Source: Bdellovibrio sp. NC01 (GTDB lineage: Bacteria > Bdellovibrionota > Bdellovibrionia > Bdellovibrionales > Bdellovibrionaceae). From it: DNA of 64,000 nucleotides. Below the pieces are notes generated by a model. The model was not told the origin of the DNA, did not search any database, and saw only the letters and a list, made by a program, of their open reading frames with translations. Shown here piece after piece: positions 25,948 to 27,385 of this stretch (position 1 is its first letter; each line of letters opens with the position of its first letter). The translations under genes were made by a program, and so were the position numbers. The stretch covers positions 2,790,001 to 2,854,000 of the forward strand of contig NZ_CP030034.1 in NCBI RefSeq assembly GCF_006874625.1, read 5' to 3'.

Positions 25948-25976
25948 AAAGCCCGGTTCAAGCCGGGCTTTTTTTA
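25948..25976 (+). terminator. Rho-independent terminator of lpdA
   Basis: GCCCGG and CCGGGC with flanking A and T runs form a compact hairpin followed by TTTTTTT, about 30 bases after the stop. Confidence 0.88.
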
Positions 25977-26054
25977 TTGGTGTCATCTTGAATGGCACTC
26001 GAATTGCTTTTCCCTTTCTTGGTCATCACTTTGACACCATTAAAGGGGGATTTA

Positions 26055-26465
26055 ATGAAACTGCTACTGATCTTTGCTGCACTTATGTTTGTAGAAACAA
26101 CATACGCATCTATTGAAATCATTCAGGATGGCAAACGCTATACCTGTCAACCGGCGGAACAAAGCTTCGACAACACTTGTGCGGGCGCAAGTTTAAAAAA
26201 AATGGGTTACGTCACTTCTGACTGCAAGCGAGTACAAAATGATTCGCAAGACATCTGCGCTGCACGATCAATCGAAAAGATGGGTTATGTAACGTCGGAC
26301 TGTTTGTCACTTCAAGGTGGCGGACAATGTGCCGTCGCTTCACTTGATAAAATGGGATACATCACATCAGATTGCAAAAGAGTCGCAAACGGTCGCCAAG
26401 ATACTTGTGCCGCTGCTTCGATTCAAAAAATGGGTTACGTGACTTCTGATTGTTTAAGTCTTTAA
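26055..26465 (+). CDS. Small secreted protein with four Cys-framed repeats
   Basis: A 136-residue protein with a signal peptide of about 18 residues (MKLLLIFAALMFVETTYA). It then has four near-identical units of the form C-A-x-x-S-[LI]-x-K-M-G-Y-[VI]-T-S-D-C, with Cys at 42/57, 68/83, 92/107 and 118/133, each pair 15 residues apart. The linkers alternate (KRV... then LSL...), so the protein is an ABAB duplication. One more Cys is at 31. AGGGGGA precedes the ATG. I do not recognise the family. The even, paired Cys suggest disulfide-stabilised mini-domains in the periplasm or outside the cell; this is inference. Confidence 0.85.
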   Translation: MKLLLIFAALMFVETTYASIEIIQDGKRYTCQPAEQSFDNTCAGASLKKMGYVTSDCKRVQNDSQDICAARSIEKMGYVTSDCLSLQGGGQCAVASLDKMGYITSDCKRVANGRQDTCAAASIQKMGYVTSDCLSL

Positions 26466-26479
26466 TTTCGAAAATAAAA

Positions 26480-26512
26480 AAAGCCTCTGCATTTTCGGTG
26501 CAGAGGCTTTTT
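26480..26512. terminator. Bidirectional terminator between repeat protein and endonuclease I genes
   Basis: AAGCCTCTGCA and TGCAGAGGCTT form an 11-bp stem with a seven-base loop, with A/T runs on both sides, so it can stop both convergent transcripts. Confidence 0.9.
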
Positions 26513-26533: not shown

Positions 26534-27385
26534 TCAGAAGCTTTGGATTTTGTCTACTAGCTCTGGGAAATCGATGAATGGATTTCTGTTGCCTTGGACT
26601 TTCCAGATTTCTTCGTTACGACGAGCTTCTTCTTCGTCTACTGGATCATCGTGATTCCATTTTCTCAAGATCGCTTCTTGGTTCGCGCTCATTTTTGCAC
26701 CGTAGTTTACTGCGAAGTAGAACAATGCACGAGCTACGTTACCTTTATGACCTTGAGGTGGTTCGAAAACATCCGCGCTACCTTTGCTTGATTTACCGAA
26801 GCGAGATACGGGGCATTTCAACGGTTTAGAGTCTTTTACAACTTCACCGAATTCGTTGTTACCACGGATCGAATTCATTTTGTTATCTGCTGGATACAAG
26901 TGGTGCAAATCTGATTTCTGCATGTTCTTGTCGAACTTGCCTACGAATTTGCTTTGTGGCCATGTGTGCTCTGTATTCAAGATGTTGCCATCAGGAATTA
27001 CGCGCGGGCCTGGAGGATTGCTTGGGAAATCACTCGTGTGTTTGTAGTTCGCGCAATAAACGTCTGGAAGTGCGTAACCGTTAGCATCTTGTACTAGATA
27101 ATAAACGCCCATCATCCACACACGTGCACGGTCATATCCCAAAGAGATATGTTGGTAGCAACCTGAACCGTTGCAGTTACCGATTTCATCAAGACCGTTG
27201 TCTACGGAACGATGTTGGCTGCGCAAAACTGTTTGCAAGCTCTTTACGAGTGCATCGTTAGTTACACCAGACGCTAGGTCTTGGTAAAACTGCTCACCAT
27301 AATATGGAATTTCGCTTGAAGAAAGAGCCGCGTGAGAAACGCCACCCACTAGAACTAACACGAACGACAAAAGCATTGCCTTCAT
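26534..27385 (-). CDS. Secreted endonuclease I (EndA/NucM family)
   Basis: A 283-residue non-specific nuclease, exported by a signal peptide (cleavage near VSHA-AL). The endonuclease I beta-beta-alpha-metal active site is clear: NTEHTWPQS (His140), DLHHLYPADNKMN (His161-162, Asn168) and the nearby RGNNEFG. Cys residues at 71, 76 and 111 could form disulfides. GGGAGGGG precedes the ATG. In a predatory bacterium such an enzyme could digest prey DNA, but that is inference from lifestyle. It stands alone, with terminators on both sides. Confidence 0.93.
   Translation of the reverse strand: MKAMLLSFVLVLVGGVSHAALSSSEIPYYGEQFYQDLASGVTNDALVKSLQTVLRSQHRSVDNGLDEIGNCNGSGCYQHISLGYDRARVWMMGVYYLVQDANGYALPDVYCANYKHTSDFPSNPPGPRVIPDGNILNTEHTWPQSKFVGKFDKNMQKSDLHHLYPADNKMNSIRGNNEFGEVVKDSKPLKCPVSRFGKSSKGSADVFEPPQGHKGNVARALFYFAVNYGAKMSANQEAILRKWNHDDPVDEEEARRNEEIWKVQGNRNPFIDFPELVDKIQSF

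What the first reader, a model, noticed from the sequence alone, without database searches (positions are those of the whole stretch)
26055..26465. ABAB tandem repeat protein with four Cys-x14-Cys units
Four almost identical 16-residue units with paired Cys are joined by linkers that alternate in type, which shows a two-step duplication. I know no named family with this motif. Secreted, Cys-paired, short-repeat proteins are often toxins, inhibitors or surface coats.
Basis: seen in the sequence. Interest (0 to 1): 0.58.

Follow-up and report, generated by a model that had tools for sequence, protein, structure and literature searches.

The report
Secreted cysteine-clamped helical repeat protein
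A predatory-type bacterium encodes a small secreted protein built from four near-identical segments, each carrying a pair of cysteines; it belongs to a rare undescribed family whose job is not yet known.

Summary
Window 26055-26465 (+) encodes 136 residues: signal peptide, short head ending Y-x-C, four C-x14-C units, linkers of 10, 8 and 10. No curated family or solved structure matches. Of 368 genomes of the phylum, 6 carry the repeat, in three taxonomic families, with 1, 2, 4, 4, 6 and 6 units. Spacing is 26/24/26/24 without one indel in all five multi-unit members, so the evolving block is a 50-residue pair. AlphaFold2 gives confident tandem helical hairpins; no close PDB fold turned up. 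The same head precedes other Cys-paired arrays, above all a commoner KAYxGPxxxxEAxxLC array with the same predicted layout. Function is inferred: a disulfide-clamped multivalent binding scaffold in the envelope. Main rival: a metal or thiol accessory, because two of six genes lie within 3 kb of, and divergent from, CusA/CzcA efflux operons and a third beside an ArsR-like regulator. The window's own copy has no such neighbour.

The parts
26042..26050 (+). G-rich Shine-Dalgarno (AAAGGGGGA)
   Evidence: sequence; similar G-rich runs upstream of several relatives
26055..26465 (+). whole gene, 136 aa precursor (P0001)
26055..26108 (+). signal peptide, residues 1-18 (by inspection, cleavage after A18 inferred)
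   Evidence: sequence
26109..26147 (+). head, residues 19-31, predicted beta hairpin ending Y-T-C31
   Evidence: strands 20-24 and 27-31, lower confidence; shared head
26178..26225 (+). unit 1 (type A), C42-C57
26226..26255 (+). 10-residue A-to-B linker
26256..26303 (+). unit 2 (type B), C68-C83
26304..26327 (+). 8-residue B-to-A linker with GGG
26328..26375 (+). unit 3 (type A), C92-C107
26376..26405 (+). 10-residue A-to-B linker
26406..26453 (+). unit 4 (type B), C118-C133
26454..26465 (+). short fixed C-terminal tail LSL and stop
   Evidence: tails LSL, LRM, KSL, FRL, LSL, LSLP in the six members
26478..26512 (.). bidirectional terminator shared with the convergent endonuclease I gene
25948..25971 (+). 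terminator-like site after the upstream lpd gene, so the repeat gene is probably transcribed alone

Best explanation
A small exported protein. After removal of the signal peptide, a short beta-hairpin head is followed by a rigid rod of tandem mini helical hairpins, each pinned by one disulfide between the two Cys of a C-x14-C unit. Two hairpins of slightly different length (first helices of 9-10 and 14 residues) make the repeating block, so the array grows or shrinks by whole AB pairs. Most likely it works as a protease-resistant multivalent binding scaffold in the periplasm or at the cell surface; the left-over head Cys may join it to a partner or to a second copy. Shown here: repeat, spacing, family, shared head. 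Predicted: helices and export. Inferred: which Cys pair, location, binding role, partner.
For: Invariant Cys and spacing in five multi-unit members. AlphaFold2 pLDDT 92-96 over residues 41-136 with helices 42-50, 55-59, 63-76, 81-84, 91-100, 105-108, 113-126, 131-134. G338 lacks the head Cys and has exactly 12 Cys in 6 units, which fits pairing inside units. The KAY relatives with the same head give the same predicted layout. Disulfide-tethered helical-hairpin repeats are known in secreted Helicobacter Hcp proteins, one of which binds another protein (PMC3851747 passages; PMC3608669 passages).
Against: No experiment. Cys pairing across linkers (x10, x8) is not excluded. Coordinates of the model could not be read, so Cys-Cys distances were not measured. 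The head is predicted at low confidence. No binding partner is known, and the metal-linked neighbours of some relatives point to another role.
Confidence: 0.45

Rival explanations
1. Periplasmic metal or thiol accessory: the Cys pairs bind soft metal ions, or are oxidised and reduced, as part of heavy-metal or thiol stress defence.
For: G349: gene 2.4 kb from, and divergent to, an OEP / CzcB-like / CusA-CzcA operon (TIGR00914 over cut-off). G212: about 0.65 kb from, and divergent to, another such operon. Both operons start with a small secreted Cys-rich (P0009) or His/Cys-rich (P0010) protein. G014: divergent from a protein resembling ArsR/SmtB metalloregulators (48.2 bits, under the NCBIfam cut-off of 55; Pfam HTH_5 over its cut-off), a cation-efflux family protein about 6 kb away and a CusA 9 kb away. 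Chance of 2 of 6 within 3 kb of an over-cut-off CusA is 6e-4.
Against: Chosen after seeing the data. 3 of 6 loci (G000, G338, G210) show no metal gene among the neighbours looked at. The two efflux proteins are only 31% identical. No conserved His. Periplasmic Cys pairs are usually oxidised (general knowledge).
Confidence: 0.25
2. Exported toxin, inhibitor or effector used against prey or competitors.
For: Small, exported, Cys-paired, patchy distribution, array number changes; host genus is Bdellovibrio by the title of a record labelled same genus.
Against: No PADLOC or toxin-family match; protein sequence conserved while third codon positions have drifted; relatives occur next to efflux operons.
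Confidence: 0.15
3. Structural coat or envelope spacer protein.
For: Rod-like array with fixed geometry.
Against: Only 6 of 368 genomes, one copy in the own genome; no multimer evidence.
Confidence: 0.08

Closest known systems
Helicobacter cysteine-rich proteins (HcpB, HcpC), Sel1-like repeats PF08238
   Same: Secreted, tandem helical hairpins stabilised by disulfides, expanded by duplication (PMC3851747 passages; PMC3608669 passages).
   Different: Sel1-like units are usually 36-38 residues against 24-26 here; Hcp disulfides tether one repeat to the next; no Sel1 match here even at E 1.
SCREPs (secreted cysteine-rich repeat proteins), a descriptive class
   Same: Secreted, repeated Cys-bearing segments, at least 4 Cys; the class includes bacterial entries (PMC6262176 abstract and passages).
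   Different: A label from data mining, not a homologous family; its best studied members are two-domain spider toxins (abstract).
KAYxGPxxxxEAxxLC array proteins of the same phylum (unnamed)
   Same: Same signal-plus-head (hhalign probability 96.4% over 34 columns) and same predicted head-plus-hairpin layout.
   Different: Unit period about 29, C-x17-C, long C-terminal helix; the profile comparison aligns only signal and head, not the arrays.
CzcI-like or CusF-like periplasmic metal accessories (recalled)
   Same: Small, exported, near metal efflux operons in two loci.
   Different: No family match; not adjacent to efflux genes in the window.

Membership tests
Sel1-like repeat (PF08238) | Match to the Pfam profile | tested here: not met
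   no Sel1 row at E up to 1 for P0001; for P0002; for P0005-P0007 at E up to 0.1
Helicobacter Hcp family | Disulfide joining the end of one repeat to the start of the next | not testable with these tools
   pairing not measured
Helicobacter Hcp family | Fold similarity to HcpB/HcpC | tested here: inconclusive
   absence from the rows is not exclusion
SCREP descriptive class | Exported, at least 4 Cys, repeated Cys segments | tested here: met
   export by inspection of the signal peptide; other filters of that paper not applied
Head-plus-Cys-array family of this phylum | Head A-D-S-F-x-I-I-x-x-G-x-x-Y-x-C after the signal peptide | tested here: met
   (the window protein was a seed in 81 and 89)
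Periplasmic metal-resistance accessory | Linked to a metal-efflux operon | tested here: inconclusive
   2 of 6 loci within 3 kb, a third 9 kb away; window copy not
Periplasmic metal-resistance accessory | Binds metal | not testable with these tools
   none
DGYLTSADW repeat proteins of G052 | Cys-paired units | tested here: not met
   those repeats lack Cys; chance similarity

The most novel reading that the evidence does not exclude
Bdellovibrionota use one conserved exported head (beta hairpin with a spare Cys) as a common carrier for several unrelated Cys-paired repeat arrays, so that arrays are swapped and resized behind a constant head, with the head Cys coupling all of them to the same partner.
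Probability: 0.3. Interest if true: 0.65.

Novelty: new variant of a known kind. Interest (0 to 1): 0.42.

Why it matters
It adds an undescribed repeat family to the small set of secreted disulfide-clamped helical arrays and gives a natural ruler: a pair of hairpins is the unit of duplication, kept to the residue across distant taxonomic families. The shared head on different arrays would be a testable rule for recognising a whole class of unannotated small secreted proteins in predatory bacteria and their kin.

Tried and rejected
Weak Pfam, NCBIfam and PHROGs rows are mostly below cut-off, cover pieces of the repeat, and differ from member to member; two Pfam rows top their cut-off by a point or so (PurK_C 23.2 against 22.6 bits for P0002; ANKLE2_3rd 28.5 and 27.4 against 27 for two KAY proteins). 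Taken as chance. G052 hits are DGYLTSADW repeats without Cys. The other weak rows (L005, L006, L008-L012) were looked at, where minus-strand loci were read on the wrong strand; L010's place (G002) was re-read as L045 and carries the head; L005, L006, L008, L009, L011 and L012 gave nothing and were dropped.

Head as a general tag in the own genome: the DNA pattern for G-K-x-Y-x-C occurs 15 times against 26 for the reversed control, and only the window gene shows it shortly behind a signal peptide (by eye). So the head is not a common motif in this genome.

Shine-Dalgarno masking by the leader: the window leader folds better than shuffles (z -2.95), but in 14 genes of head and target family the SD is paired clearly more than in shuffled leaders in only 1 (5 or fewer of 100 shuffles as high). 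Rejected as a shared control. No Rfam match.

Homogenisation of dimers: mean identity within proteins 70%, between 57%; the tree puts the dimers of G014, G338 and G349 each on one side of a branch with moderate to good support, those of G000 not; lineage-wise expansion or concerted change is likely, not proven.

Structure searches of the KAY model gave TALE-type superhelices (Foldseek best E 0.35; VIA Z 9.6, 3.3 A over 132), taken as a common arrangement only. Hcp chains did not appear in the rows. Predicted viral structures, viral contigs, phages and plasmids: nothing convincing. Outside the phylum only two pattern scans of genome contigs were possible (patterns from P0001, then from P0001 plus P0002); they found one locus, the G014 genome, and would miss members as far as G338.

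Literature, search listings only unless named: 'Bdellovibrio + cysteine-rich + repeat protein + secreted' (1 paper, off topic), 'Bdellovibrio + disulfide + tandem repeat' (1, off topic), 'Bdellovibrio + Cys-rich + secreted proteins + predation' (0); CzcI and Bdellovibrio with metals gave nothing on this protein. That it is undescribed rests on these searches and on the family libraries.

Full report
OBSERVATION. The gene at 26055-26465 (+) encodes 136 residues. Four C-x14-C units start at residues 42, 68, 92 and 118, spaced 26, 24, 26; linkers are 10, 8, 10 residues. Self-overlap peaks at offset 50 (38 identities; best of 1000 shuffles 16), then at 26 (28) among the offsets printed. The DNA copies have drifted (88 of 135 bases, 16 of 45 third positions), so the protein repeat is old and selected. 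The gene probably stands alone: a terminator-like site follows the upstream lpd gene (named by inspection) and a bidirectional terminator separates it from the convergent endonuclease I gene.

FAMILY. A profile of 11 dimers (A4) was run on all 368 genomes held of the phylum; 30 have a match at E up to 0.1, but the list breaks sharply: 6 genomes at E 1e-8 or better (G000, G014, G349, G338, G212, G210), then G052 at 5e-4, which is a Cys-free repeat, then scattered short rows from 0.009 upward that I did not read. The first five were seeds of A4; G210 had been found with A1. They lie in three taxonomic families (f1, f7, f26). Units: 4, 6, 4, 6, 2 and 1. In the five multi-unit members the spacing is 26, or 26/24/26, or 26/24/26/24/26 without exception, and the last unit is followed by three or four residues. 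The AB pair is therefore probably the ancestral block.

GAIN OR LOSS. Of 24 genomes of the genus, only G025, besides the window's own, has lpd next to this endonuclease in the stretches fetched, and it has no repeat gene between them. G014 carries its copy elsewhere. So the gene was gained in the window's lineage or lost in G025's; which, cannot be told.

STRUCTURE. AlphaFold2 with six sequences gives pLDDT 92-96 over the array and short helix pairs; A-type first helices have 9-10 residues, B-type 14 because the 10-residue linker adds to them. The head is a beta hairpin at lower confidence. Foldseek finds nothing better than E 1.7 in the PDB; designed helical repeats give VIA Z 4.0 at 4.4 A over 102 residues. 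This is a prediction; Cys distances were not measurable here.

THE HEAD. Profile comparison links the target family with KAYxGPxxxxEAxxLC proteins over signal peptide and head only (96.4%, 34 columns); signal peptides help such a score. A head profile (A7, 12 seeds) run on 368 genomes returned its 12 seeds at E 5e-14 or better, then non-seeds from 3e-5 upward, mixed with plain signal peptides. I read eight of these loci that reached the head Cys, plus a second gene in G349. Four of the eight are KAY arrays (G206, G277, G155, G183), which is independent support for the head. Others carry different Cys arrays: the second G349 gene (E 3e-5), G113, G289, G057; G002 was already a seed; G258 has no clear array. 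After adding nine sequences (A8) a second round gave 27 hits at E 2.1e-5 or better, 21 of them seeds: 16 with KAY arrays, 4 with the target's array, 5 with other Cys arrays (G002, G057, G289, G113, G349 second), and 2 without a clear array (G258, G022). Apart from the second G349 gene and G002, the heads on other Cys arrays had first-round E-values of 0.0017 to 0.0054, which is weak. The KAY model shows the same layout: strands 21-25 and 28-32, then four helical hairpins and a long C-terminal helix. Of ten headed proteins with Cys counts (G000, G014, G349, G212, G002, G014 second, G024, G034, G023, G020), eight have an odd number in the mature part, so one Cys is left over; G212 and G024 are even. 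G338, without head, has twelve.

NEIGHBOURS. G349 and G212 carry the gene divergent from CusA/CzcA operons; G014 carries it divergent from an ArsR-like regulator whose NCBIfam score is under the cut-off (48.2 against 55). Over-cut-off CusA genes number 1, 3, 4, 3, 1, 4 in G000, G014, G349, G338, G212, G210. Two of six genes within 3 kb has chance 6e-4, three within 10 kb 7e-5; counting all 38 rows the figures are 3e-3 and 1e-3. These are after-the-fact tests on one category among many. Ten loci of KAY and other head proteins and the whole 64 kb window showed no match to the ten efflux, ArsR, CDF and neighbouring proteins used as queries.

READING. The most economical account is an exported, disulfide-clamped helical array that binds something in the envelope, resized by whole AB pairs. 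The metal link is the best specific lead but fits at most half of the loci. Compared with what is known, Hcp proteins work most alike, but profile, unit length and perhaps disulfide logic differ, so this is not filed as Hcp or Sel1-like.

Noticed in passing
L121 (G022), directly downstream of lpd: A secreted protein with a head-like NVAVINGKKYTC start but no Cys array sits next to lpd, the same gene that precedes the repeat gene in the window.
   Followed up: partly
L201:4829-5293 (G349): A second head-bearing protein with a two-fold array of many Cys, about 11 kb from the target homologue and beyond a CusA operon and a CDF-like frame.
   Followed up: partly
L142:3509-5363 (G014): Three consecutive frames that look by eye like TIR-like and caspase-like proteins (possible defence genes) beside a recombinase-like fragment, close to the repeat gene.
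   Followed up: no
L029, L036, L030, L031: Further secreted arrays of Cys-paired short units without the head (CYKQAYNxxYDxxKAxxLC, CFDEASGRNLxARQKVALC, CYxATPxxLDxxxSVxLC types) in the same taxonomic family.
   Followed up: no
window 25970-26075: Leader of the repeat gene can pair a CUUUUCCCUUU stretch with the G-rich Shine-Dalgarno (z -2.95); not shared by relatives.
   Followed up: partly
window 26534-27385: Secreted endonuclease I gene, convergent with the repeat gene; one to four matches in each of 24 genomes of the genus.
   Followed up: no
L143:6818-7147 and L145:4423-4833: Small secreted Cys-rich and His/Cys-rich proteins that open two CusA/CzcA operons; the L145 frame matches no Pfam or NCBIfam family, the L143 one was not tested.
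   Followed up: partly
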